From Streptococcus suis (GTDB taxonomy: Bacteria; Bacillota; Bacilli; Lactobacillales; Streptococcaceae), in contig CP102145.1 of NCBI GenBank assembly GCA_024583055.1, forward strand, positions 496,001 through 560,000: a stretch of DNA of 64,000 nt. Reading direction: 5' to 3'. A program made the position numbers and the translations under genes. Shown here piece after piece: positions 11,933 through 23,696 of the stretch. Numbering within the stretch: position 1 is the first letter of the stretch; the number at the start of each line of letters is the position of its first letter. Below the pieces are notes generated by a model, which had not been told where the DNA came from, made no database searches, and was given only the letters and a program-made list of their open reading frames with translations.

Positions 11933-11961
11933 TTGACTTTAACCCCAAAATCTTGTATTCT
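11933..11961 (+). promoter_or_regulatory. nrdHEF promoter
   Basis: TTGACT (11933-11938) and TATTCT (11956-11961) with a 17-base spacer lie about 60 bases before the nrdH ATG and just downstream of the second NrdR-like box. Confidence 0.75.
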
Positions 11962-12018
11962 AGATTGGTAAATTTGAAGGGAATTATGCAATTTCCTTGT
12001 AAACAAAGGAGAAATCGA

Positions 12019-12237
12019 ATGGTTACTATCTATTCAAAAAATGATTGTGTACAGTGCAAGATGTCTAAGAAATTCCTAGACCAACACGGTGTGGAATACA
12101 AGGAAATTAACCTGGATGAGCAGCCAGAATTTATTGACCACGTCAAAGGACTTGGTTTCTCATCAGCGCCAGTGATTGAAACCGAAAACGACGTTTTCTC
12201 TGGTTTCCAACCTGCAAAATTAAAAGCCTTAGTATAA
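12019..12237 (+). CDS. nrdH: Glutaredoxin-like NrdH redoxin
   Basis: 72 residues from the ATG that begins MVTIYSKNDC, with AAGGAG eight to ten bases upstream. The longer frame adds an unlikely N-terminus encoded over the promoter. The redox motif Cys-Val-Gln-Cys lies at residues 10-13, and the C-terminal SGFQPAKL segment matches NrdH. It reduces the NrdEF ribonucleotide reductase using thioredoxin reductase. It leads nrdH-nrdE-nrdF. No nrdI is seen nearby, although class Ib NrdF normally needs that flavodoxin to assemble its manganese-tyrosyl cofactor, so nrdI must be elsewhere. Confidence 0.95.
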   Translation: MVTIYSKNDCVQCKMSKKFLDQHGVEYKEINLDEQPEFIDHVKGLGFSSAPVIETENDVFSGFQPAKLKALV

Positions 12238-12266
12238 GAACCCTATTATAGAAAGAGATTGCGACT

Positions 12267-14426
12267 ATGAGTTTGAAAGATTTGGGCGATGTGTCCTACT
12301 TCCGTTTAAATAACGAAATCAACCGTCCTGTCAATGGACAAATCCCCCTCCACAAGGATCAGGAGGCCCTTAAAGCCTTTTTCAAGGAAAATGTTATCCC
12401 TAACAGCAAGCAATTCGATAGCATTTTGGATAAAATCAACTATCTTGTCGAGGAAAATTATTTAGAAAAAGAATTTTTGGAGCAGTACAGCCCAGAATTT
12501 CTCATTAAAATTGACCAATTTTTGAAAGACCAGAACTTCCAATTTAAGTCTTTCATGGCAGCCTACAAGTTTTATAACCAGTACGCCCTCAAGACAAACG
12601 ACGGTGCTTACTATCTGGAAAGCATGGAGGACCGCGTCCTCTTCAACGCCCTCTATTTTGCGGAAGGTGACGAAGAATTGGCCTTGGATTTGGCAAACGA
12701 GATGATCCACCTGCGTTACCAGCCTGCAACTCCTTCCTTCCTCAATGCTGGTCGTGCTCGCCGTGGTGAATTGGTATCCTGTTTCTTGCTTCAAGTAACA
12801 GACGACATGAACTCTATCGGTCGTTCTATCAACTCTGCTCTGCAATTATCCCGTATCGGCGGCGGTGTCGGTATCTCCCTCAGCAACCTGCGTGAGGCTG
12901 GCGCTCCTATCAAGGGATATGAAGGAGCTGCATCTGGTGTCGTTCCAGTTATGAAACTTTTTGAAGATAGTTTCTCTTATTCCAACCAGCTTGGTCAGCG
13001 TCAAGGTGCCGGTGTGGTTTACTTGGATGTTTTCCACCCAGATATTATCGCTTTCCTTTCGACTAAGAAGGAAAATGCGGATGAGAAAGTTCGTGTAAAA
13101 ACCCTTTCTCTCGGTATCACTGTTCCTGATAAGTTCTACGAATTGGCTCGTAAAAATGAGGACATGTACCTCTTCAGCCCTTACTCTGTTGAGCTAGAAT
13201 ACGGCGTGCCATTCAGCTATTTGGACATTACAGCTAAATATGACGAGTTGGTGGCCAACCCTCGCATTCGTAAGACAAAAATCAAGGCCCGCGATTTGGA
13301 GACAGAAATTTCAAAACTCCAACAAGAATCAGGCTATCCGTATGTCATCAACATTGACACGGCCAACCGCAGCAATCCAGTTGACGGTAAAATCATCATG
13401 TCCAACCTTTGCTCAGAAATCCTGCAAATCCAGACACCAAGCGTCATCAACGATTCGCAAGAATATTTGACAATGGGTACTGACGTTTCATGTAACTTGG
13501 GTTCAACCAACATTGTTAACCTCATGAAATCACCTGACTTTGGTCGTTCTGTTCGTGCTATGACACGCGCCTTGACCTATGTTACTGACCATTCGCACAT
13601 TTCTGCTGTGCCTTCGATTGAGGCAGGTAATGAGCGTGCACATTCGATTGGTTTGGGTGCCATGGGACTTCATTCTTACTTGGCGCAAAACTTGGTGGAC
13701 TACGGTTCAAAAACAGCCGTTGAATTTACCAATATCTACTTCATGCTCCTCAACTACTGGACTTTGGTAGAATCAAACAACATTGCACGCGAACGCAAGG
13801 CGACTTTTGATAACTTTGAAAACTCAAAATACGCAGACGGCACTTATTTCGATAAGTATGTGACAGGCGACTACCAACCACAATCTGACCGTGTTAAAGA
13901 ATTGTTCCAAGGTATTTTCATTCCAAGCGGACAAGATTGGGCTGACCTGCGTGATAAGGTGATGGCAGACGGTCTCTACCACCAAAACCGCTTGGCAGTT
14001 GCACCAAACGGCTCTATTTCCTATATCAATGATGTCTCTGCTTCCATCCACCCAATTACTCAACGGATTGAAGAACGTCAAGAGAAGAAAATCGGTAAAA
14101 TCTATTATCCAGCAGCAGGCTTGGCAACGGAAACTATTCCGTTCTACAAATCAGCCTACGACATGGATATGCGCAAGGTGATTGATGTCTACGCTGCTGC
14201 TACTGAGCACGTCGACCAAGGTTTGTCACTGACCCTCTTCCTCCGCAGCGAATTGCCAAAAGAGCTTTACGAGTGGAAAAATGAGAACAAGCAGACAACC
14301 CGTGACCTCTCTATCCTGCGCAACTACGCCTTCAACAAAGGCATCAAGTCTATCTACTACATCCGCACCTTCACCGACGACGGAGAAGAAATCGGATCAA
14401 ACCAATGTGAAAGTTGTGTAATTTAA
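12267..14426 (+). CDS. nrdE: Class Ib ribonucleoside-diphosphate reductase, alpha subunit
   Basis: 719 residues, the expected NrdE length. The catalytic subunit reduces ribonucleoside diphosphates to deoxy forms in complex with NrdF. Visible features are the active-site cysteine in GELVSCFLLQVTDDMNS, the substrate loop GGGVGISLSNLREAGAP, the thiyl-radical region SNLCSEILQIQTPS, and the redox-active C-terminal pair in NQCESCVI that NrdH reduces. No ATP-cone regulatory domain is present at the N-terminus, as is typical for class Ib. It follows nrdH closely and is separated from nrdF by an unusually structured 175-base gap. Confidence 0.97.
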   Translation: MSLKDLGDVSYFRLNNEINRPVNGQIPLHKDQEALKAFFKENVIPNSKQFDSILDKINYLVEENYLEKEFLEQYSPEFLIKIDQFLKDQNFQFKSFMAAYKFYNQYALKTNDGAYYLESMEDRVLFNALYFAEGDEELALDLANEMIHLRYQPATPSFLNAGRARRGELVSCFLLQVTDDMNSIGRSINSALQLSRIGGGVGISLSNLREAGAPIKGYEGAASGVVPVMKLFEDSFSYSNQLGQRQGAGVVYLDVFHPDIIAFLSTKKENADEKVRVKTLSLGITVPDKFYELARKNEDMYLFSPYSVELEYGVPFSYLDITAKYDELVANPRIRKTKIKARDLETEISKLQQESGYPYVINIDTANRSNPVDGKIIMSNLCSEILQIQTPSVINDSQEYLTMGTDVSCNLGSTNIVNLMKSPDFGRSVRAMTRALTYVTDHSHISAVPSIEAGNERAHSIGLGAMGLHSYLAQNLVDYGSKTAVEFTNIYFMLLNYWTLVESNNIARERKATFDNFENSKYADGTYFDKYVTGDYQPQSDRVKELFQGIFIPSGQDWADLRDKVMADGLYHQNRLAVAPNGSISYINDVSASIHPITQRIEERQEKKIGKIYYPAAGLATETIPFYKSAYDMDMRKVIDVYAAATEHVDQGLSLTLFLRSELPKELYEWKNENKQTTRDLSILRNYAFNKGIKSIYYIRTFTDDGEEIGSNQCESCVI

Positions 14427-14427
14427 C

Positions 14428-14498
14428 GTGGCAAGTGTTGTTGAAACTAACGTTTCTAACAACACTACGGAAAGTTCTATGGAACATTTCCTAGCCAC
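14428..14498 (+). ncRNA. Structured RNA element in the nrdE-nrdF gap (three-way-junction-like)
   Basis: The closing stem GTGGC / GCCAC (14428-14432 with 14494-14498) encloses two hairpins. The first is AGTGTTGTT-GAAAC with GTTTC-T-AACAACACT, 14 pairs with one bulge (14434-14466). The second is GGAAA-GTTC with GAAC-A-TTTCC (14469-14491). Nested complementarity of this kind is unlikely by chance. It could be an mRNA-processing or stability element setting the NrdE:NrdF ratio, or a sensor. It matches no riboswitch class I know. Confidence 0.5.
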
Positions 14499-14526
14499 CT
14501 TACTAACTTCCACAAAATAGTTAACT

Positions 14527-14566
14527 AACGTCCTTTGGGCGTTTTTTAACAGAAATATGATACAAT
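14527..14566 (+). promoter_or_regulatory. Internal terminator and extended -10 promoter before nrdF
   Basis: AACG-T-CC pairs with GGCGTT around TTTG and is followed by six T (14527-14547), a compact terminator with one bulge. It is followed immediately by TGATACAAT (14558-14566), an extended -10 element about 35 bases before the nrdF ATG; no good -35 is seen. Together they suggest nrdF is partly uncoupled from nrdHE. Confidence 0.55.
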
Positions 14567-14601
14567 AGTTTCAACACTTTATGATAAGGAAAGAGATGAA
14601 C

Positions 14602-15564
14602 ATGTCACAAACCTACTACAAAGCCATAAACTGGAATGCCATTGAAGATGTCATTGACAAATCGACCTGGGAAAAATTGACCGAGCAATTTTGGCTCGAC
14701 ACGCGTATCCCTTTGTCCAATGACTTGGATGACTGGCGTAAATTGACTGCCGAAGAGAAAGACCTGGTTGGCAAGGTCTTTGGTGGTCTGACACTCTTGG
14801 ATACCCTTCAATCTGAAACAGGTGTTCAAGCCCTCCGCCAAGATGTGCGGACACCACACGAAGAGGCTGTTTACAACAACATCCAATTCATGGAGTCTGT
14901 TCACGCCAAGTCCTACTCTTCTATCTTCTCCACTCTTAACACCAAGTCAGAGATTGAAGAAATTTTTGAATGGACCAACAGCAATGAATACCTGCAACGC
15001 AAGGCTAAAATCATCAACGAAATTTATGAAAATGGCACAGCGCTCGAGAAGAAAGTAGCCAGCGTATTTTTAGAGACTTTCCTTTTCTATTCTGGTTTCT
15101 TCACTCCGCTCTACTATCTTGGAAATAACAAGCTGGCCAACGTTGCAGAAATCATCAAACTGATTATCCGTGACGAATCTGTCCACGGTACCTATATCGG
15201 CTACAAATTCCAGCTCGGTTTCAATGAATTGACCGAAGAGGAGCAAGACAAGCTCCGCGACTGGATGTACGACCTACTCTATCAGCTTTATGAAAATGAA
15301 GAAGGCTACACTCGTTCGCTCTATGATAGCGTTGGCTGGACTGAGGAAGTTTTGACCTTCCTACGCTACAATGCCAACAAAGCCCTCATGAACATGGGAC
15401 AGGACCCACTCTTCCCAGATTCAGCGGATGATGTCAATCCAATCATCATGAACGGTATTTCGACCGGTACATCCAACCACGACTTCTTCTCTCAAGTTGG
15501 TAACGGCTACCTGCTTGGTGAAGTAGAGGCCATGCAGGATGATGATTACCTTTATGGTTTGTAA
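14602..15564 (+). CDS. nrdF: Class Ib ribonucleotide reductase, beta subunit
   Basis: 320 residues from the ATG beginning MSQTYYKAINW, preferred because it matches the family N-terminus and keeps AAGGA at usable spacing; two in-frame ATGs lie just upstream. NrdF is a ferritin-like di-metal protein that holds the tyrosyl radical needed by NrdE. Metal-ligand segments are visible around MESVHAKSYSSIF and IRDESVHGTYIGYKFQ. In streptococci the active cofactor is dimanganese, assembled with NrdI. It ends in the terminator shared with the convergent membrane-protein run. Confidence 0.96.
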   Translation: MSQTYYKAINWNAIEDVIDKSTWEKLTEQFWLDTRIPLSNDLDDWRKLTAEEKDLVGKVFGGLTLLDTLQSETGVQALRQDVRTPHEEAVYNNIQFMESVHAKSYSSIFSTLNTKSEIEEIFEWTNSNEYLQRKAKIINEIYENGTALEKKVASVFLETFLFYSGFFTPLYYLGNNKLANVAEIIKLIIRDESVHGTYIGYKFQLGFNELTEEEQDKLRDWMYDLLYQLYENEEGYTRSLYDSVGWTEEVLTFLRYNANKALMNMGQDPLFPDSADDVNPIIMNGISTGTSNHDFFSQVGNGYLLGEVEAMQDDDYLYGL

Positions 15565-15574
15565 AATAGATAAA

Positions 15575-15603
15575 TAAAAAAGCAGTCGACCACTGCTTTT
15601 TTT
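15575..15603. terminator. Bidirectional terminator between nrdF and the membrane-protein operon
   Basis: GCAGT / ACTGC arms with a five-base loop are flanked by A6 on one side and T7 on the other, so the hairpin ends transcription arriving from either strand. Confidence 0.85.
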
Positions 15604-16281
15604 CTATACCCCAACCAATATCATGCCGTAGGCAATCAGGTTGTTGACAAAATGGAGCGCCATTGAATAGCGGATATCTCGTTTGAGCAAGAAAATCCAT
15701 CCCAGATTGACTCCCATTGTAAAGTAAATCAAGAACTGCGGAATGGTTGCTGGTCCGTGTGGTAGGCTGAACAAAAGCCCTGACACAACCAAGTAAATCC
15801 CCACTGTTTTCATGCTCTGCATTTTCGGGAAGAAATAGGTGGCCAGAAAACCACGGAAAATCAATTCTTCCAGGATAGGGGCAAATACCACTACGGAGAA
15901 AAAGGCAAGAATGGGGTAAGCAGAAACAAACTGCACCACTATCATCTGGTTTTGGCTTTCCTCTACAGGAATGAGAAACTGAATGACAAAATAGACCAGG
16001 TAGACCAGAATCGGCCAGTGTAGCTTGTGGAACCAGCTGCTTTCGACGGTGTAGGCAATGGTCTTGCGTGGATAGACGACCTTCCAGAGGACCACAGCGA
16101 GGATTGTGGTCAGCACGATGCCGATAATGCCGCTAATCCAGACTGCTTGTTCCACAATTGGAGCTGGTAGCTCTGCTGCTAGTTGGTCCTTGAAGATGCC
16201 CAGCGAGATAAAGCTGCTGGTGACCTGGCTTGCTAGGAAATAAAGCACTATCAAGCCTAAGTGTTTGATAAATTTTAACAT
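15604..16281 (-). CDS. CPBP family intramembrane protease
   Basis: 225 residues with about seven hydrophobic segments. The CPBP (Abi/CAAX protease) motif 1, EELIFRGFLATYFF, lies near residue 135, and a downstream LFSLPHGP carries the expected histidine. CPBP members are glutamate-type intramembrane proteases, and in lactic acid bacteria several act in bacteriocin self-immunity; which job applies here is unknown. It is the last gene of the eleven-gene membrane run and ends in a bidirectional terminator. The start follows a weak GGGG Shine-Dalgarno. A second CPBP gene lies two genes upstream, so the operon carries two non-identical paralogues. Confidence 0.85.
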   Translation of the reverse strand: MLKFIKHLGLIVLYFLASQVTSSFISLGIFKDQLAAELPAPIVEQAVWISGIIGIVLTTILAVVLWKVVYPRKTIAYTVESSWFHKLHWPILVYLVYFVIQFLIPVEESQNQMIVVQFVSAYPILAFFSVVVFAPILEELIFRGFLATYFFPKMQSMKTVGIYLVVSGLLFSLPHGPATIPQFLIYFTMGVNLGWIFLLKRDIRYSMALHFVNNLIAYGMILVGV

Positions 16282-16290
16282 AGATAACCC

Positions 16291-16608
16291 CTAATCTACT
16301 TTTCTAAATTCAGCAATAGCATCCAGTCTGACCAAGCGAGTCGTGGTCTTACCGGCCTTGCCTGTCTGACTGAGCTTGACCCAATCCTCATCGCAGGCCC
16401 CAATCGTAAAATCCTGTCCAATCCCATCTTCAAAGACTACATGTACTGTAGCACCAACCAATTCTTCCACCATTTTTGACATGACATTTCCTCCATTTAT
16501 CTGTTTTTTGAGTTTCTTGATCTGCTTGGCCATTTTCTTGACTTTTCCATCGTAGGAAAAATAGGATACAAACAGGAAACCAACCGCTGCAAGGGCTATA
16601 TACTCCAT
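16291..16608 (-). CDS. Small hypothetical protein: membrane helix plus soluble domain, with an internal start
   Basis: 105 residues. Residues 1-18 form one membrane helix, residues 20-40 are lysine-rich (KKMAKQIKKLKK), and residues 43-105 form a small soluble, probably beta-rich domain. GGAGG lies well placed before the first ATG. A second good GGAGG, seven bases before an in-frame ATG at codon 43 (position 16482), would yield the soluble domain alone (63 residues). Either one fused gene or two nested products are possible. I recognise no named family with confidence. It lies between the two CPBP genes, which suggests a role as their partner. Confidence 0.65.
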   Translation of the reverse strand: MEYIALAAVGFLFVSYFSYDGKVKKMAKQIKKLKKQINGGNVMSKMVEELVGATVHVVFEDGIGQDFTIGACDEDWVKLSQTGKAGKTTTRLVRLDAIAEFRKVD

Positions 16609-16623
16609 ACTTTCACCTCCGAC

Positions 16624-17307
16624 TTATCCTAATGAACCATTCATGAGCATTTGCATCAAAAGCATGAGCAAAAATCCGATGATATTGTTGATGAAATGCA
16701 CCAGCATGCTGTACTCCAAGCGTTTGCCTAGGCGGTAAATGAGACCTAGCACCAGCCCCATGCCCCCATACATAATCCAAGAACCAAGCCCTGTCGGAGC
16801 GTGCATGAGACCAAAGAGTAGGCTGGATAAGATGAGACCGAAGATAGATTCCTTGCCAAAGATTTTGCCCATGATAAAGCCTCGGAAGACGATTTCCTCG
16901 ACAATAGGAGCAAAAATAGATGTCAATAAAAACAAGATAATCGGAGGAAATCCCATATCTTCAATGGCTTGCTGATTGACTGTGTTGAGCCCTTCACCCG
17001 ACAATTGCATGACAATGCCTGCTATGATTTTAACAGCAAAAACTGCGATAAATCCAAGACCTACATAGGCCAACATCTTGAGAAAACCGTCCTGCCAAAA
17101 TTTTGAGAGTAACTTCGCTTTACCTGCTAAGAAGATTTCCAAACCTGTCACTACCAGCAAGGCAGCGCTTGCCCAAACTAGATTGAGCCCTTGGTAATTG
17201 TCCAACCGAACTAAAACAAAGGTCGCTCCTATATTTAATGCAAAAGCCAAGAGAAACCATAAAATATAGGGCCAATTTTTCACCATATTCCATTCTTTAA
17301 TTTTCAT
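16624..17307 (-). CDS. CPBP family intramembrane protease (second copy)
   Basis: 227 residues, about seven membrane segments, with the CPBP motif EEIVFRGFIMGKIFG near residue 140 and the following LLFGLMHAPTG containing the motif 2 histidine. AAGGAG lies eight bases before the ATG. It is homologous in layout, but not close in sequence, to the CPBP gene at the operon's end. CPBP proteins next to XRE regulators and small membrane peptides are reminiscent of bacteriocin immunity clusters, though no bacteriocin precursor with a double-glycine leader was found here. Confidence 0.85.
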   Translation of the reverse strand: MKIKEWNMVKNWPYILWFLLAFALNIGATFVLVRLDNYQGLNLVWASAALLVVTGLEIFLAGKAKLLSKFWQDGFLKMLAYVGLGFIAVFAVKIIAGIVMQLSGEGLNTVNQQAIEDMGFPPIILFLLTSIFAPIVEEIVFRGFIMGKIFGKESIFGLILSSLLFGLMHAPTGLGSWIMYGGMGLVLGLIYRLGKRLEYSMLVHFINNIIGFLLMLLMQMLMNGSLG

Positions 17308-17328
17308 CGCAATCTCCTTTTTTCTATA

Positions 17329-18087
17329 TTATTTATAATAATTTTTTGCCATTTTTAACTGCATGACCATAATATAGATATGAATACCTCCTGCAATCAA
17401 TAGGCCTGTCAATTCTACTTCTCCTTGAATAGCTGAAAGAGCAAAACAAAATAGATAAATCCCCGGTAAAATCATACTGCTCAAGTTCATCACGATTTCA
17501 AAAGACATTTTGTAGTTTGCCTGCAATTCTGCCTCATCCAACCCTAAAACGTTAGCCTTTACTTCTTTCAAGGTTGGCACAAGAGGCGCCTTAATACCTT
17601 TTATCTTATTGTGCCGTTTCATCAGCAACATTTGCATAACAGTGGTGTAAACCAAGACAACAAATGGCCAAATTGAAAAGAATATAAATAACCCATTAGA
17701 AGAAATATCCAATTTCAAATTGAGCATCAAACTGACCATTCCCAAAACTGACATAAGACCTGTAAATGTCACTGCGTACAAGTAGTCTAAACTCAGTACT
17801 CGATATAGTTCATCAATGCGCTCATCGTCATCAGCTAAATCCTTATATATTTTATAGTTCTTTTCTGCTTTTATAAAATAATAAAGCTGTACCAATAAGG
17901 AAACAAGTGTCATGAACAAGAGTACTCCGCTAGCTATATCAAGGATAGTTTGGAAGGGTAGTTGCAAAGGATGATCTAATAAGCCAAAAAATCCAATTAA
18001 AAAACCTATAGGCGCACCAATTAAAACACCAATACCCAGTTGTTTACCTAATCTGAGAAGACTATTTTTTGATTTTTCTTTCTTCAT
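17329..18087 (-). CDS. DUF3169-like integral membrane protein
   Basis: 252 residues with about six hydrophobic segments, a basic N-terminus (MKKEKSKNSLLR) and a cytoplasmic loop after the second helix. It resembles the DUF3169 family found in streptococci and staphylococci beside small YozG-like XRE regulators; the function is unknown. Its ATG overlaps the stop of the XRE gene by four bases (ATGA), so the two are translationally coupled. Such pairs are often a repressor and its membrane-linked partner. The family name is from memory and moderately sure. Confidence 0.7.
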   Translation of the reverse strand: MKKEKSKNSLLRLGKQLGIGVLIGAPIGFLIGFFGLLDHPLQLPFQTILDIASGVLLFMTLVSLLVQLYYFIKAEKNYKIYKDLADDDERIDELYRVLSLDYLYAVTFTGLMSVLGMVSLMLNLKLDISSNGLFIFFSIWPFVVLVYTTVMQMLLMKRHNKIKGIKAPLVPTLKEVKANVLGLDEAELQANYKMSFEIVMNLSSMILPGIYLFCFALSAIQGEVELTGLLIAGGIHIYIMVMQLKMAKNYYK

Positions 18088-18299
18088 CCCTCTACCTCCA
18101 CTAATTGAAAGACATTTTCCACATTTTCATTAAAAATCTGTGCAATTCGCATGGCAATGACCACCGAGGGCGTATATTCGCCACGCTCTATCAGACTAAT
18201 GGTCTGCCGCGAAACTTCTGCTAATTTTGCCAACTCTGTCTGGTTGAGGCTATCCCGTGCCCGCAACTCCTTAAGCCGATTTTTTAAGACATATTCCAT
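18084..18299 (-). CDS. Small XRE-family (YozG-like) transcriptional regulator
   Basis: 71 residues, essentially a single Cro/C1 helix-turn-helix: LNQTELAKLAEVSRQTISLI followed by ERGEYTPSV, with a short C-terminal helix. Small regulators of this type repress their own operons and are commonly paired with small membrane proteins. It is the only DNA-binding protein encoded in the run, so it is the obvious candidate for the inverted repeat and phased half-sites at the operon promoter. That link is inference. The gene is coupled to the DUF3169-like gene by a four-base overlap. Confidence 0.9.
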   Translation of the reverse strand: MEYVLKNRLKELRARDSLNQTELAKLAEVSRQTISLIERGEYTPSVVIAMRIAQIFNENVENVFQLVEVEG

Positions 18300-18311
18300 G
18301 TTGTTTCCTTT

Positions 18312-18878
18312 CTAGGCTTGGTAGATAATCAAGCCTGTTTCTGTGTCTTCGACAGCTATATTCCCCTTAGCAAACTTAACCAACAAGAGATAAGTATAGT
18401 AGAAATCACCAGCACAAGCAGCTGCATGCATGGTAGCTACCATCAGATAAAGAGATACGTCCATTCCCCCTAAGCACGCTAGTATTGTCAAGCCTAGACT
18501 AATCACGACAAAGGGAGCCAGGGAAATTACCAACATTTGCATCCGATTATAGAGGGAACCTGGACTGGTTGCATAGGCCATGCCGGACTTCCATTTAAAC
18601 CCGTATTTGACAGGATTTTCAGGACAAAAAATCTTGAAAAATAATCCATGAATAGCTTCATGTACAACTATCAAAAGAGGAAATAGAACCATTCCTATCC
18701 ATAACTCTGGTAAGGTAAGTGGCAAATTTTGTTCTACATTGGCCAACAAGGAAAAGGCTAACTTACCAAATAGCAGAGCAAATGGGAAGACTAGAACAAT
18801 CGCAAGAATATTCAATCCCCAGACAAATTTCTTATTTTCCATGATATTGACTTCATATAATTTCTTTTTCGCTTCCAT
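18312..18878 (-). CDS. DUF3267-like putative membrane zinc metalloprotease
   Basis: 188 residues with four or five hydrophobic segments. VVHEAIHGLFFKIF near residue 75 contains HExxH, the zinc-protease signature, at a membrane boundary, and the layout fits the DUF3267 family related to site-2-type proteases. A possible third ligand is not obvious. The ATG beginning MEAKKKLYEV has AGGAG upstream; the internal ATG twelve codons later has none. Neighbours are small membrane peptides and an XRE regulator, so it may cleave one of them. Function is not established. Confidence 0.72.
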   Translation of the reverse strand: MEAKKKLYEVNIMENKKFVWGLNILAIVLVFPFALLFGKLAFSLLANVEQNLPLTLPELWIGMVLFPLLIVVHEAIHGLFFKIFCPENPVKYGFKWKSGMAYATSPGSLYNRMQMLVISLAPFVVISLGLTILACLGGMDVSLYLMVATMHAAACAGDFYYTYLLLVKFAKGNIAVEDTETGLIIYQA

Positions 18879-18905
18879 CTTTCTTCTCCTTCATTTTCCT
18901 TCAAG

Positions 18906-19010
18906 CTAGACTAAACTATATAGTCCTAGAGCAACTCCAATCAGTAAGCCGAATATAGTTGCCCCTGTAATCATAATTGCTGCCATATCAGATGAAATGT
19001 GTCGTTTCAT
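18906..19010 (-). CDS. 34-residue single-span membrane peptide
   Basis: ATG with AGGAG eight bases upstream opens a 35-codon frame encoding MKRHISSDMA, then a hydrophobic helix rich in Gly, Ala, Ile and Leu, ending LYSLV. It is short, but the clear Shine-Dalgarno, its place inside a tightly packed operon and the coherent basic-then-hydrophobic pattern support a real gene. It could be a small regulatory membrane peptide or a toxin-like peptide. No leader or modification motif is seen. Confidence 0.6.
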   Translation of the reverse strand: MKRHISSDMAAIMITGATIFGLLIGVALGLYSLV

Positions 19011-19030
19011 AAGGTTTCTCCTGTCTTTCC

Positions 19031-19234
19031 TTAGCTTTTTTCACTATTTTTCTTTTTGTTAAATTGCAGAGCTAACACCAGTGTCGCCAATAAAGGAGGA
19101 AAGGGATAACTCATTTCCGTCAAACCAATGTCAAATCCTAGCAAGGCAAAAATTTTAAATATCAAAATAGTTATCAAGAAGAGTGCGAAAAACAGTAGGA
19201 CTACTTTCATTCCATTTTTAACTGTCTTGTTCAT
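19031..19234 (-). CDS. 67-residue hypothetical membrane protein
   Basis: The start at MNKTVKNGMK is chosen because AAGGAG lies nine to eleven bases before it; the longer frame reads through the preceding gene. Two hydrophobic helices (about residues 9-30 and 38-55) lie between a basic N-terminus and a lysine-rich tail (NKKKNSEKS). The start overlaps the end of the preceding gene by 17 bases. There is no recognised family. It belongs to the set of small two-helix proteins in this operon. Confidence 0.7.
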   Translation of the reverse strand: MNKTVKNGMKVVLLFFALFLITILIFKIFALLGFDIGLTEMSYPFPPLLATLVLALQFNKKKNSEKS

Positions 19235-19442
19235 TTTTCTTCTCCTTTTCTCTGCTGAGAGTGACATCTAAAAGAAGGAGAGAATTCATCATCATCAAGA
19301 GTATCATGGTATCTATCTCCCGACCAAATACGATGTTTTTAACTAAACTATAAATCAAATATAGTGCAACTAGAACCTGCACTCCTCGCACAACGCTTGT
19401 TCCTGTAATCAAAATTCCTTTTTTATTGTTATTGTTTTTCAT
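19218..19442 (-). CDS. 74-residue hypothetical membrane protein
   Basis: Begins MKNNNNKKGI with GGAGG five bases upstream. There are two predicted membrane helices (about residues 12-35 and 43-60) and a charged C-terminus (SREKEKKNEQDS). In topology it resembles the neighbouring 67- and 69-residue proteins: short basic N-terminus, two helices, charged tail. No family is recognised; the small proteins may be distant paralogues. Confidence 0.72.
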   Translation of the reverse strand: MKNNNNKKGILITGTSVVRGVQVLVALYLIYSLVKNIVFGREIDTMILLMMMNSLLLLDVTLSREKEKKNEQDS

Positions 19443-19492
19443 AACGACCTCCAAGATCAATCAATACGCTTTTCTGTTTTCAATTCCTTATC

Positions 19493-19666
19493 CTAGAACC
19501 AGGCCGTCAAAGCCTGTCCAAACTCCAATCCAATGTGATAGAGAGTAAATATGATCTCTTTAATATCAATCAACGTAATAATAAGTAGAGTTAGAAGAAC
19601 TTTCTCACGTTTGGTCCAATTATTGAAATTCACTTCAGATTTTGTAGGTGACATATTTTTACTCAT
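19493..19666 (-). CDS. 57-residue hypothetical membrane protein
   Basis: Begins MSKNMSPTKSEVNF, then a basic segment (NNWTKREKVL) and one or two hydrophobic helices ending in LTAWF. The Shine-Dalgarno is weak (GGGAAA). It fills a 228-base space in an otherwise packed operon, on the same strand, and the charged-then-hydrophobic pattern matches its neighbours. No family is recognised. Confidence 0.55.
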   Translation of the reverse strand: MSKNMSPTKSEVNFNNWTKREKVLLTLLIITLIDIKEIIFTLYHIGLEFGQALTAWF

Positions 19667-19694
19667 GATGATTTCCCGCTTTCTTTATTTTTAC

Positions 19695-19904
19695 TTACTT
19701 TATTCTTTTCCCGTTTTTCTCTTTTCTGCCAGCTAGTTTCCACAAGTTCTCATCTGTCACTACGATGGCACAAATGGCAAGAACGACATGAGTATTATCC
19801 AACTGCTGCCACTTCATGATGTCAGCCAGCAGGACAAAAACTAGATAGGCAATTGCCAGTACTTGTACGAAGCGCGCAATGTGAAGATTGTTTAACTTTT
19901 TCAT
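19695..19904 (-). CDS. 69-residue hypothetical membrane protein, first gene of the operon
   Basis: Begins MKKLNNLHIARFVQVL, with AGGA nine bases upstream. There are two hydrophobic helices (about residues 10-28 and 38-50) and a lysine/arginine-rich tail (AGRKEKNGKRIK). It is the first open frame after the operon promoter. It resembles the 74-residue protein in having a short cytoplasmic start, two helices and a basic end. Function is unknown. Confidence 0.72.
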   Translation of the reverse strand: MKKLNNLHIARFVQVLAIAYLVFVLLADIMKWQQLDNTHVVLAICAIVVTDENLWKLAGRKEKNGKRIK

Positions 19905-19963
19905 AATAGTTTCCTACTTTCTTTTTATATGATGATTTCGCTTTCATCTCTTATCTTGATATC

Positions 19964-20050
19964 ATTGTAACACTTCTTTTTCTTTTTGACAAGTATATTT
20001 GTCAAAAAAATAATAAAAATTGTCAAAAAGTTTATGAAGATAGTCAAAAT
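19964..20050 (-). promoter_or_regulatory. Promoter of the membrane-protein operon with a phased operator array
   Basis: On the minus strand TTGTCA (19987-19992) and TACAAT (19964-19969) are 17 bases apart. The -35 lies inside a perfect ten-base inverted repeat TTTTTGACAA / TTGTCAAAAA with a six-base centre (19983-20008). Further half-sites TTGTCAAAAA (20020) and TAGTCAAAAT (20041) follow with the GTC cores at 20001, 20022 and 20043, exactly 21 bases or two helical turns apart. This is a strong pattern for cooperative repressor binding, probably by the operon's XRE protein. Confidence 0.7.
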
Positions 20051-20076
20051 GTAGCTGATAATGGGCAATTAGACAA

Positions 20077-20098
20077 GCAAAAAAGCCCAAATGGGCTC
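20077..20098 (-). terminator. Terminator of the PfkB kinase gene
   Basis: On the minus strand AGCCC pairs with GGGCT around ATTT and is followed by a six-base T-run, a few bases after the stop codon. Confidence 0.88.
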
Positions 20099-20102
20099 GA
20101 AT

Positions 20103-21005
20103 TTATAATTCTGATAAATACTTTCTTAAATCCTCATAGGTTGATGAAGGCAGGTGTACGCCGGGGTTGGCCACAATATAACTGGCGACACGATTGGCAA
20201 AGTCGAGCAACTTGTCCAAGGATTTTCCACTAGCTAATCCTGCCAATAGAGCGCCAACATGACTATCCCCCGCTCCCACCGCGTCTACCACTTGCGCTGG
20301 ATAAGACCTTTGCTCATGCCATTGTCCATCGTAGGCCAAAGCTCCAGCCTCTCCTCTGGTTACCACCAGCGCTTGCCCGGTGCGTTCATTTAAGATCTGC
20401 ACAGCCTGCCTGATGTCAGTTTGACCTGATAATGTCAAAGCCTCTTGCTCATTGACATGGAGGATAGGAGACAAATCCAAGACTTGCTCCATGCGCTGCT
20501 TATCTATCAGATGTCCTCGCGGTCCCGGCGCAAAAATGAGCTGGGCAGGAATAGTTTCCAAACTGTCCACTAATGCCTGACCTGTTTCTTCCTCCACTTC
20601 TAAACCACAAACGTAAGCATAATCGTACTCCGATAAATCCAACTGGTCCAGCCAAGTAGGGTCAAAATGGTATTCCACACCATGGTCGGACAGAAAGGTC
20701 CGTTCTCCGTCGCTTTCGATAAAGCAGTAACAACAGCCGTTGGCTCTTTCCACTAAAACCCGTGGTTCAATTCCAATTTTTTCCAGCTCATTCCTGACAA
20801 AATGACCGTAAATGCCCGTCCCTACAGGTGAAATGAAATCATAGTCCACACCCATGTGGTGCAGGATATTGACCACATTGAAAGCACAACCGCCCAGAGA
20901 CAGGACCTGTTTGTCAATATGCGCATCGCCTTGCCGCCCCGGTAACTGATCCAGATAAATCATCACATCACAAACGGTCGAACCGATTACCAAACATTTT
21001 CCCAT
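20103..21005 (-). CDS. PfkB family carbohydrate/nucleoside kinase
   Basis: 300 residues from the ATG beginning MGKCLVIGSTVCDV, with GGAGG seven bases upstream. It has the ribokinase fold: an N-terminal GGCAFNVV sugar-binding signature near residue 40 and the C-terminal VDAVGAGDSHVGALLAG signature, whose aspartate is the catalytic base and GAGD the anion hole. The family phosphorylates sugars, nucleosides or related compounds with ATP; the substrate cannot be told from sequence, and no sugar-pathway genes are adjacent. It is monocistronic. Its extended -10 promoter (TGCTATACT, 21029-21037) abuts the alaS terminator. Confidence 0.88.
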   Translation of the reverse strand: MGKCLVIGSTVCDVMIYLDQLPGRQGDAHIDKQVLSLGGCAFNVVNILHHMGVDYDFISPVGTGIYGHFVRNELEKIGIEPRVLVERANGCCYCFIESDGERTFLSDHGVEYHFDPTWLDQLDLSEYDYAYVCGLEVEEETGQALVDSLETIPAQLIFAPGPRGHLIDKQRMEQVLDLSPILHVNEQEALTLSGQTDIRQAVQILNERTGQALVVTRGEAGALAYDGQWHEQRSYPAQVVDAVGAGDSHVGALLAGLASGKSLDKLLDFANRVASYIVANPGVHLPSSTYEDLRKYLSEL

Positions 21006-21037
21006 AGCAAAACCTCCGCTATAGAGATAGTATAGCA

Positions 21038-21070
21038 CAAAAACTCCCCTATCCAGAGATAAGAGAGTTT
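21038..21070 (-). terminator. Terminator of alaS
   Basis: On the minus strand AAACTCTC pairs with GGGGAGTTT (with wobble) and the arm runs into TTTTTG, directly after the alaS stop codon. Confidence 0.7.
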
Positions 21071-21077
21071 GAGAATG

Positions 21078-23696
21078 TTACAAATTTTCAGCGACAGCCT
21101 TCAACAAATCTGCAATCTTAGACGCATCGCTACCACCTGCCATGGCCATATCTGGCTTACCACCACCACGACCTGCTACGATTGGCGCAAGGACTTTGAT
21201 GAGGTTTCCTGCATGGACATCGCTTGACTTGCTTGCCACAAGGACATTGACCTTGTCGCCGATTTCGGCAACCAGCACCAAGACATCAGAGTAGTCTTTC
21301 TGCTTCCAGTTGTCAGCGAAGGTACGGAGAGCACCTGCATCTGAAACTTGGACCTGGCTGGCAATGTAGCGAATGCCGTTAGCATCTTTGACATCTTTGA
21401 AGACATCTCCAGCAGCTGCTGCCGCTGCCTTTTCTTTCAGACTAGCATTTTCTTTTTGCAAATCGCGGAGCTCCGCAGCCAGTGCCTCCACTTTTGTCGG
21501 CACTTGGTCGATTTGTGGCACTTTAAGGGTCTGCGCAACAGCTTTGAGAGCATCCTCGCGGTCACGAAGAGCTAGGAAAGCTTCCTTACCTGTCACCGCT
21601 AAAATACGGCGAGTTCCTGAACCGATACCTTCTTCTTTGACAATCTTGAAAAGACCGATTTCAGCGGTATTGCTAACGTGGGTACCACCACAAAGCTCGA
21701 TAGAATAGTCACCGATTGTAACCACACGGACCACTTTGCCATACTTCTCACCAAAGAGAGCCATAGCCCCCATTTCTTTAGCCGTATCCACATCCGTTTC
21801 AACTGTGACAATATCCAAGGCTTCCCAGATTTTTTCATTGACTTCATTTTCAATACGACGAAGTTCATCAGCTGTCACCGCTTCAAAGTGTGTGAAGTCA
21901 AATCGAAGGAATCCTTGCTCGTTCAAAGAACCAGCCTGGGTTGCATGCTCACCGATGACATTGTGAAGAGCGGCATGAAGCAAGTGAGTTGCTGTGTGGT
22001 TCTTCTCAACACCACGACGACGGTTTGTGTCGATTTCAAGTGTGTAAGTTTGACCTAGTGAAATGCTAGCAGATAGTTCTACGGTGTGCAATGGCTGACC
22101 ATTCGGTGCTTTTTGCACATCCACAACTGTTGCAACGACATCACCTGAAGCATTTTTAATCACACCACGGTCGGCAACCTGACCACCCATTTCAGCGTAG
22201 AATGGTGTTTGGTCAAAGACAAGAAGGGCTTGACCTTCTGACACAGCTTCTGTCCGCTCATTGTCCGCGATAATCACTGCCAACTTGGCATCTAAGCTAG
22301 TTTGACCATAGACAAAAGTTGAGCTTTCGGTAATACCTGCTAGGGTTTCATTTTGCATACCCATTGAGCCACCTTTAACAACGGCCGCACGGGCACGGTC
22401 CTGCTGTTCTTTCATGGCAACCTTGAAGCCTTCATGGTCAATCTTATAACCCGCATCTTCAGCCAATTCCTCGGTCAATTCCACAGGGAAACCATAGGTA
22501 TCGTAGAGCTTGAAGATATCCTTACCTTCAAGAGTATCCTTACCAGCTGCTTTCAACTCAGCTAAAAGTTCCTCCAAGTGACCGCTACCAGCATCAATGG
22601 TGCGAGCAAAGGTTTCTTCCTCACGTTTAACGATTTTCTCGATAAAGTCACGTTTTTCAAGCACTTCTGGGTAGTAGCTTTCCATGATAGCACCAACCGT
22701 TTCCACCAATTTGTACAAGAATGGCTCGGTGATACCCAAACGACGACCATGCATAACAGCACGACGGAGCAAGCGACGAAGAACATAACCACGACCTTCA
22801 TTTCCTGGAAGGGCACCGTCACCGATAGCAAATGACAAGGCACGGATATGGTCTGCGATGACCTTGAAGCTCATGTTATCACCATCTTGATCATAGGTCT
22901 TACCAGAAATTTTCTCCACTTCACGAATGATTGGCAAGAAGAGGTCGGTTTCAAAGTTAGTCTTAGCTCCTTGGAAAATGGCAGCCAAACGCTCCAAACC
23001 TGCACCCGTATCGATGTTTTTGTTTGGCAATTCCTTGTACTCTGAACGCGGAACTGCTGGGTCAGCGTTGAATTGTGAAAGAACGATGTTCCAAATCTCG
23101 ATGTAACGGTCGTTTTCAATGTCTTCTTCCAGCAAACGAATGCCGATATTTTCAGGGTCAAAATCTGTTCCACGGTCGAAGAAAATTTCCGTATCGGGTC
23201 CAGAAGGTCCCGCACCGATTTCCCAGAAATTATCCTCGAGTGGAATGAGGTGACTTGGGTCTACACCAAGCGCAATCCAGCGGTTGTAGGAATCCTTATC
23301 ATCTGGATAGTAGGTCATGTAGAGCTTGTCTTTTGGAAAGGCAAACCATTCTGGACTTGTCAAGAGCTCATAGCCCCACTCAATGGCCTCATCACGGAAA
23401 TAATCACCGATAGAGAAGTTGCCCAGCATTTCAAACATGGTGTGGTGGCGAGCGGTCTTACCAACATTTTCAATGTCATTGGTACGGATTGATTTTTGCG
23501 CGTTGGTAATCCGTGGATTTTCAGGAATGACAGAGCCGTCGAAATATTTTTTCAGGGTCGCCACACCAGAGTTAATCCAAAGCAAAGTTGGGTCGTTAAC
23601 TGGAACAAGATTGGCAGAAGGCTCAACAGAGTGGCCTTTTGATTTCCAGAAATCCAACCACATTTGACGAATTTGAGCAGAAGATAATTGTTTCAT
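21078..23696 (-). CDS. alaS: Alanyl-tRNA synthetase
   Basis: 872 residues, the normal full length. It charges tRNA-Ala and edits mischarged Ser/Gly. Visible parts are the class II catalytic core beginning [17 protein letters not shown], the editing domain with [14 protein letters not shown] and its zinc-ligand partner [15 protein letters not shown], and the C-terminal oligomerisation domain with [14 protein letters not shown]. The Shine-Dalgarno is weak (TTGGT-type), but the start matches the family. Upstream lies a two-hairpin leader, then a LURP-one gene, then an alanine-type T-box, so alaS is probably expressed as the second gene of the T-box transcript. Confidence 0.98.

What the first reader, a model, noticed from the sequence alone, without database searches (positions are those of the whole stretch)
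15604..19904. Eleven-gene run of almost only membrane proteins: a candidate undescribed system
Seen: eleven packed minus-strand genes, with a four-base overlap (XRE/DUF3169-like), a 17-base overlap, and five proteins of 34, 57, 67, 69 and 74 residues. The rest are two CPBP proteases, a putative HExxH membrane protease (DUF3267-like), a DUF3169-like protein, a small XRE regulator and a small helix-plus-domain protein. Known: CPBP proteins act in bacteriocin self-immunity in some lactic acid bacteria, and small XRE regulators often sit with small membrane proteins. Inference: the membrane proteases process or degrade the small peptides, giving an immunity, envelope-stress or peptide-signalling module. 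No leader peptide, ABC exporter or modification enzyme was seen, so bacteriocin production itself is not supported.
Basis: partly seen in the sequence, partly recalled or inferred. Interest (0 to 1): 0.8.

Follow-up and report, generated by a model that had tools for sequence, protein, structure and literature searches.

The report
Membrane-stress operon with swappable sensor
This eleven-gene run is very probably a streptococcal version of the staphylococcal AyrR/AyrA stress switch, in which a small repressor and a membrane sensor control a set of membrane proteases and tiny membrane proteins; it matters because the same DNA switch is found in related bacteria while the sensor and its protease cargo are exchanged between strains.

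Summary
In detail: eleven packed minus-strand genes, 15604-19904, with the stated overlaps and domains; one (57 aa) has no relative in any locus fetched. The system is not wholly undescribed. Its XRE regulator and DUF3169 protein match AyrR and AyrA, repressor and sensor of the Staphylococcus aureus signal-peptidase stress operon ayrRABC (PMC5727409). Evidence: 65-75% identity to the HTH proteins of AyrRABC-type operons; D-E-(A/G)-E in 53 of 53 DUF3169 rows; near-strict XRE-DUF3169 pairing in streptococci; and a shared operator, TTGACAA-N6-TTGTCAA, whose right arm is the -35 box at 17-bp spacing, in streptococci, a named S. epidermidis and other Bacilli. Its only exact match in this genome is this operon's promoter. 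New here: no AyrBC transporter; the cargo is a DUF3267 zincin, two CPBP proteases, an Sm-like protein and small membrane proteins; and in the S. suis complex the sensor-protease half is replaced as a cassette, DNA similarity stopping at the regulator/sensor overlap in 19 of 19 loci while the regulator stays ~97% identical. Most likely a membrane/secretion-stress module; sensing of foreign membrane peptides (immunity) is the main rival. All evidence is from sequence.

The parts
19986..20005 (-). Operator: 20-bp inverted repeat TTGACAA-N6-TTGTCAA, predicted AyrR-type binding site
   Evidence: Only exact match in the 2.19-Mb genome; 97 of 147 genus genomes against 2 of 147 for the backward control; 71 of 75 listed places lie upstream of the XRE gene
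19964..19992 (-). Promoter: TTGTCA (right arm of the operator) - 17 bp - TACAAT
   Evidence: same geometry in 49 of 49 loci examined, 35 streptococcal with the exact operator and 14 chosen of 20 others
19695..19904 (-). 69-aa two-helix membrane protein, probable paralogue of the 74-aa one
19493..19666 (-). 57-aa ORF, doubtful; no relative in any fetched locus
19218..19442 (-). 74-aa two-helix membrane protein
19031..19234 (-). 67-aa membrane protein
   Evidence: 13 of 19 S. suis-complex loci; median pairwise identity 71%
18906..19010 (-). 34-aa single-helix membrane protein
   Evidence: 12 of 19 S. suis-complex loci; median pairwise identity 82%
18312..18878 (-). DUF3267 putative membrane zincin protease (HExxH)
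   Evidence: PF11667 3.9e-24; HExxH in 22 of 22 called relatives, window included
18084..18299 (-). AyrR-type XRE repressor, 71 aa
17329..18087 (-). AyrA-type DUF3169 six-helix membrane sensor; start of the exchanged cassette
   Evidence: PF11368 5.2e-24; D-E-(A/G)-E in 53 of 53 rows; six long helices in the model, pLDDT 77.4
16624..17307 (-). CPBP intramembrane protease 1
   Evidence: PF02517 1.8e-22; three motifs in order in 55 of 55 called CPBP proteins, window included
16291..16608 (-). Membrane helix + coil + Sm-like barrel protein, possible second start at M43
   Evidence: Model pLDDT 62.8, barrel about 77; best PDB match Gemin6/7 E 5.2e-4, the only one under 0.001; internal ribosome site 12 of 13 scored
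15604..16281 (-). CPBP intramembrane protease 2; DNA similarity to relatives resumes inside or after it
   Evidence: PF02517 3.3e-19
15576..15602 (-). Terminator-like hairpin, 11 pairs plus T-run

Best explanation
The run is one AyrRA-type membrane-stress operon. In the resting state the 71-aa AyrR-type repressor sits on the operator at 19986-20005 and covers the -35 box, so the whole operon, its own gene included, is kept low. The DUF3169 protein (AyrA type) lies in the membrane, senses membrane-held peptides (uncleaved signal peptides, or other membrane-inserted peptides) through its variable outer and membrane parts, and releases AyrR through its conserved cytoplasmic loop with D-E-A-E. Derepression then makes a DUF3267 zincin, two CPBP proteases and small membrane proteins, which clear or tolerate the offending peptides, taking the place of the AyrBC transporter of staphylococci. 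Shown here by sequence: the AyrR/AyrA relationship, the operator and its promoter geometry, the cargo, the cassette exchange. Inferred: binding, the signal, the direction of signalling, and what the cargo does.
For: XRE 65% identical to the HTH protein of a named S. epidermidis operon HTH-DUF3169-ABC ATPase-ABC-2 permease; streptococcal orthologues 68-75% to two more. Of 147 genomes of the genus, 119 have a strong XRE match and all 119 also have DUF3169; 117 of 120 XRE genes lie within 1.5 kb of it (17 weaker XRE rows, E about 1e-14 to 1e-13, and 7 second DUF3169 rows were not entered). D-E-(A/G)-E in 53 of 53 rows (two rows are repeat contigs), the motif given for the family in PMC5727409. 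Operator: 97 of 147 genomes, control 2 of 147; 71 of 75 listed places (of about 100) upstream of XRE; 14 of 20 loci outside the genus have at least 12 of 14 operator bases within 120 bp of XRE, against 11 of 4000 shuffles; -35/17/-10 geometry in 49 of 49 examined; 11 of 15 streptococcal loci without the exact operator have a near one with that spacing, against 4 of 300 shuffles. 7 of 50 streptococcal loci carry an ABC ATPase/permease pair beside XRE-DUF3169. Four loci carry a PspC-type protein there (PspC domain checked in one).
Against: No expression, binding or inducer data. The operon lacks AyrBC, the part tied to bypass of signal peptidase. Sensor similarity is low: 19% in a profile comparison with the S. 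epidermidis protein, probability 89%, and 24-28% over full-length BLAST matches of other streptococcal DUF3169, so the signal may differ. The streptococcal ABC ATPase is only 22-29% identical to the AyrB position, a level that unrelated ABC ATPases also reach; its permease is not detectably similar to the AyrC position and falls in another Pfam family. Four of 15 streptococcal loci without an exact operator, and 6 of 20 loci outside the genus, have none at the thresholds used. With two mismatches allowed the genome has 48 operator-like places against 11 for the control, so weaker further targets are possible. Named rows for the 69/74-aa family are S. suis, S. parasuis or Streptococcus sp. (120 of 223 rows listed), so the small-gene block's link to stress is by position only.
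Confidence: 0.72

Rival explanations
1. A bacteriocin-immunity module: the DUF3169 sensor recognises foreign or sibling membrane-active peptides and switches on CPBP and zincin proteases that protect the membrane; the sensor and proteases are exchanged between strains because the peptides they meet differ.
Against: No bacteriocin gene, leader peptide or exporter was recognised among the ORFs of 11953-23696, though no dedicated precursor search was made. The locus is chromosomal, between genes I read as alaS and nrdF (names recalled from sequence). The described AyrA signal is the cell's own preproteins.
Confidence: 0.2
2. A peptide-signalling module: the small membrane proteins are precursors cut by the CPBP and DUF3267 proteases to give signals read by the DUF3169 protein.
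For: Small proteins and intramembrane proteases sit in one operon; the 69/74-aa family is very diverse, 223 clusters at 90% identity.
Against: The small-gene families are absent from most loci outside the S. suis complex that keep XRE-DUF3169; no exporter was recognised; the CPBP proteases are exchanged with the sensor while the small proteins, on the other side of the break, mostly are not.
Confidence: 0.05
3. A chance run of unrelated small genes between alaS and nrdF without common control.
For: That interval is a variable site in streptococci, where genes may simply collect; promoter- and terminator-like sites alone are near chance numbers.
Against: Spacing of 50 bases or less, conserved order, and a conserved operator at the front that is the only exact one in the genome.
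Confidence: 0.03

Closest known systems
AyrRABC of Staphylococcus aureus (signal-peptidase stress operon; Craney and Romesberg 2017, PMC5727409)
   Same: Small Cro-like repressor overlapping or abutting a six-helix DUF3169 sensor with D-E-(A/G)-E; repressor acts upstream of its own operon; same operator and -35/-10 geometry in AyrRABC-type loci and, by eye, in a named S. epidermidis operon.
   Different: No AyrBC transporter in the window; cargo is CPBP and DUF3267 proteases and small membrane proteins; regulator is the seventh gene, not the first; sensor alleles are exchanged.
CylR1/CylR2 of the Enterococcus faecalis cytolysin operon
   Same: Small XRE repressor (phmmer 2.3e-12 to CylR2, after a PbsX-family regulator at 2.7e-13) with a membrane partner needed for induction and no phosphorelay (PMC3709268, passages).
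   Different: CylR1 has three predicted membrane helices, DUF3169 six; no cytolysin genes here.
CPBP (Abi) bacteriocin self-immunity proteins of lactic acid bacteria (recalled)
   Same: CPBP motifs present in both proteases.
   Different: No linked bacteriocin genes recognised; CPBP genes are cargo of an operon with an AyrR-type operator.

Membership tests
AyrR/AyrA regulator-sensor pair | Small Cro-like XRE repressor of the AyrR type | tested here: met
   65% identity over 60 residues to the S. epidermidis operon's HTH protein; 68-75% between streptococcal orthologues and two AyrRABC-type loci. No S. aureus AyrR sequence itself was at hand.
AyrR/AyrA regulator-sensor pair | Adjacent DUF3169 protein with six membrane helices and D-E(a/g)E in loop 4-5 | tested here: met
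   PF11368, motif in 53 of 53 rows, six long helices in the model
AyrR/AyrA regulator-sensor pair | Repressor site at the operon promoter, shared with staphylococcal loci | tested here: met
   sequence evidence only
AyrR/AyrA regulator-sensor pair | Repressor actually binds; DUF3169 relays preprotein accumulation | not testable with these tools
   Needs binding and induction experiments
AyrRABC operon | AyrBC ABC transporter in the operon | tested here: not met
   No ABC domain among the eleven proteins. So this is an AyrRA operon, not an AyrRABC operon
CPBP bacteriocin immunity gene | CPBP protease motifs | tested here: met
CPBP bacteriocin immunity gene | Linked bacteriocin precursor and exporter | tested here: inconclusive
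   None recognised among the ORFs of 11953-23696; no dedicated precursor search made
CylR1/CylR2 | Three-helix CylR1-type partner and cytolysin genes | tested here: not met
   Partner is DUF3169 with six helices; none of the eleven proteins has a lantibiotic domain

The most novel reading that the evidence does not exclude
AyrR-AyrA is a general chassis in Bacilli: one nearly fixed repressor and operator, to which different sensors and different cargo (ABC extractor, CPBP/zincin proteases, PspC and small membrane proteins) are plugged in. In the S. suis complex the sensor and its proteases are exchanged as one cassette exactly at the repressor/sensor junction, each version tuned to a different set of membrane-inserted peptides, so the locus works as a polymorphic innate-type recognition system of the membrane.
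Probability: 0.3. Interest if true: 0.8.

Novelty: new variant of a known kind. Interest (0 to 1): 0.6.

Why it matters
The 2017 AyrA paper proposed that ayrRA might be a new kind of two-component signalling system in other species; in the passages I read it names no operator sequence and no cargo for them. The conserved operator makes that directly testable in harmless streptococci and bacilli, predicts which genes each AyrR controls, and gives a likely role to DUF3169. The cassette exchange offers natural chimaeras (one repressor, four sensor types) for finding out what the sensor recognises.

Tried and rejected
Rejected: a phage-defence reading (PADLOC, six of the eleven proteins given: only the XRE matched, 15 families, HTH-type by my reading). 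Rejected: a known RNA element (no Rfam match at gathering score, 15300-20400). Mobile-element reading weakened, not excluded: the window's DUF3169 finds no plasmid record at E <= 1e-5, but a distant DUF3169 pair is on NZ_CP121525.1, listed as a 386-kb S. epidermidis plasmid. Further exact operator targets in this genome: none; of three one-mismatch sites only one was looked at, L139, near an ORF that I read as a recombinase.

Led nowhere: fold search of the DUF3169 model against PDB, no match at E <= 0.001; homologue search with the Sm-like protein gave one close relative; Pfam and NCBIfam gave only sub-threshold noise for the five small proteins. Pneumococcal literature was inconclusive: PMC11559097 (one passage) lists SP2116-20/SPD1945-49 under a CAAX protease name, falling together in serum, while PMC5327383 (passages) gives SPD_1945 and SPD_1946 rod-shape names; that these tags are the locus of the mitis-type loci is recalled, not tested, so I do not rely on it. 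PMC6004102, PMC10269507 and PMC7939560 (passages) added nothing decisive. The other four papers were seen as listings only.

Dropped or assumed before counting: L059 and L066 (same contigs as L046 and L040) are left out but are among the 50 loci, the 35 and the 53 rows. L048 is not among the 19 loci (more distant; its similarity ends at 18091). In one search six of 20 loci outside the genus were left out; all 20 are, where the XRE start was assumed for L120, L124 and L125 (no XRE ORF was called in L124). In one search the operator list was the 75 places printed of about 100. In one search, 13 of 28 Sm-like genes could be scored for the internal start; the same call's strict pattern for the second CPBP motif fitted 18 of 55, the plain pattern fits 55 of 55. 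Flanking gene names (alaS, nrdE, nrdF, pfkB, hisS, aspS) are recalled from the sequences, not from a call.
Full report
OBSERVATION. Gaps are 9-50 bases, with a 4-base overlap of XRE and DUF3169 and a 17-base overlap of the 74- and 67-aa genes. Pfam assigns DUF3267, HTH_3, DUF3169 and two Rce1-like (CPBP) domains; the five small proteins have none over threshold. A promoter-like site precedes the run and a terminator-like hairpin ends it, but both kinds of site occur near chance numbers in the region; the promoter is made credible by its conservation, below. GC is 0.35-0.42 over most of 17200-20200, lower than the 0.44-0.51 of most flanking stretches.

NEIGHBOURHOOD. The fullest order is alaS - (pfkB) - 69 aa - 74 aa - 67 aa - 34 aa - DUF3267 - XRE - DUF3169 - (DUF3278 and a 60-aa protein in many) - CPBP - Sm-like - CPBP - nrdF (flank names recalled). 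Over 50 streptococcal loci (49 fetched, two of them repeat contigs, plus the window), my ORF caller finds DUF3169 in 50, CPBP in 37, DUF3267 in 22, the 69/74-aa family in 22, an ABC ATPase/permease pair in 7 and a PspC-type protein in 4; it misses some genes, for example it called XRE in 44.

THE CORE IS AyrR-AyrA. A search for DUF3169 in print led to PMC5727409 (abstract and passages read): in S. aureus AyrR represses ayrRABC, and AyrA, a DUF3169 protein with six membrane helices and a D-E(a/g)E motif, is needed to pass on the signal of stable uncleaved preproteins. That paper states that ayrRA homologues occur in other species without ayrBC and may be a new two-component system. The motif is D-E-A-E or D-E-G-E in 53 of 53 DUF3169 rows, two of them from AyrRABC-type loci. 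In 147 genomes of the genus 120 have DUF3169; the 119 genomes with a strong XRE match are among them, and 117 of 120 such XRE genes lie within 1.5 kb of DUF3169. Full-length similarity of the sensors is weak (19-28%).

THE OPERATOR. A 20-bp inverted repeat, TTGACAA-N6-TTGTCAA, covers the promoter. Its one exact match in the 2.19-Mb genome is at 19986-20005 of the window; with two mismatches there are 48 places against 11 for the control. In the genus 97 of 147 genomes have an exact match, against 2 of 147 for the backward control; of 75 listed places (of about 100) 71 lie 29-1508 bp upstream of the XRE gene. Its right arm is the -35 box, 17 bp from a TAnnnT box, in 35 of 35 streptococcal loci with the exact operator (window and two repeat contigs included) and 14 of 14 chosen loci outside the genus. 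All 20 loci outside the genus were scored: 14 have at least 12 of 14 operator bases within 120 bp upstream of XRE, against 11 of 4000 shuffles. Of 15 streptococcal loci without an exact match, 11 have a close one with the same spacing, against 4 of 300 shuffles. The named S. epidermidis operon has TTGACTAATATACTTGTCAT, 12 of 14, then TATAGT 17 bp on (read by eye). In the loci examined the operator stands ahead of the operon while genes are added between it and the regulator.

CASSETTE EXCHANGE. Among 20 S. suis-complex loci (window included), XRE has a median pairwise protein identity of 97% (19 loci called), DUF3169 45% (minimum 28%), in four groups of 12, 4, 3 and 1 loci. The window's type is the single one, though a 98% identical protein stands for 39 member sequences in the protein database. 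Against 19 other loci, blastn similarity with the window stops at 18068-18098 in 19 of 19, that is at the XRE/DUF3169 overlap (18084-18087); it resumes in the second CPBP gene or nrdF in 17 (one, L039, also matches a stretch of the first CPBP gene). L038 and the window are 96% identical over 19445-18083. Three loci (L044, L047, L077) have DUF3169 with no CPBP after it. Replacement of a sensor-led cassette explains this much better than point mutation. Within DUF3169, over 53 rows, the outward loops score 0.17, 0.17 and 0.30 in pairwise identity, helices 2 and 4 0.22-0.25, the cytoplasmic loop 4-5, helices 5-6 and the C-terminus 0.45-0.49 (region borders set by me from the model), as expected if the inside contacts a constant repressor.

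MECHANISM. Shown by sequence: the pair, the operator, the geometry, the cargo, the exchange. Inferred from S. aureus: repression by operator occupation, relief through DUF3169 when peptides stay in the membrane. Inferred here: that proteases do the clearing that AyrBC does in staphylococci. All 55 called CPBP proteins keep the three motifs in order, and all 22 called DUF3267 proteins keep HExxH, so they are likely active. What the small membrane proteins do is open. The immunity rival uses the same switch with a foreign peptide as signal; CylR2 with its membrane partner CylR1 is a precedent.

NOVELTY. Regulator and sensor belong to a known pair. The protease cargo, the shared operator and the cassette exchange did not appear in the listings of searches for DUF3169, AyrR with arylomycin, AyrA with SPase, DUF3267/CPBP/operon/repressor, S. 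suis/CPBP/bacteriocin immunity and secretion stress/Streptococcus/signal peptidase/CAAX. These cover open-licence papers only; the two earlier Ayr papers were not held, so an operator described there would not have been seen. I file it as a new variant of a known kind.

Noticed in passing
16291-16608 (minus): The Sm-like protein has a conserved internal Met (M43) with a ribosome-binding site just upstream in 12 of the 13 genes (of 28) that could be scored, against 18.7% of codon positions in these genes: possibly two products, membrane-anchored and soluble. Its barrel resembles Sm/Hfq folds in a low-confidence model.
   Followed up: partly
L063 (G127): DUF3169 is broken at this locus, with fragments matching two parts of the query about 1.6 kb apart, as if an allele were decaying after exchange.
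   Followed up: no
L083, L084: Two DUF3169 genes stand in tandem in mitis-type loci downstream of a hisS-like gene (name recalled).
   Followed up: no
L043, L064: The 34-aa gene is duplicated within the small-gene block.
   Followed up: no
CP079755.1 248738-248935: A plasmid record named Klebsiella grimontii carries an HTH protein 64% identical to the XRE; contamination or a distant relative, not examined.
   Followed up: no
   Followed up: no
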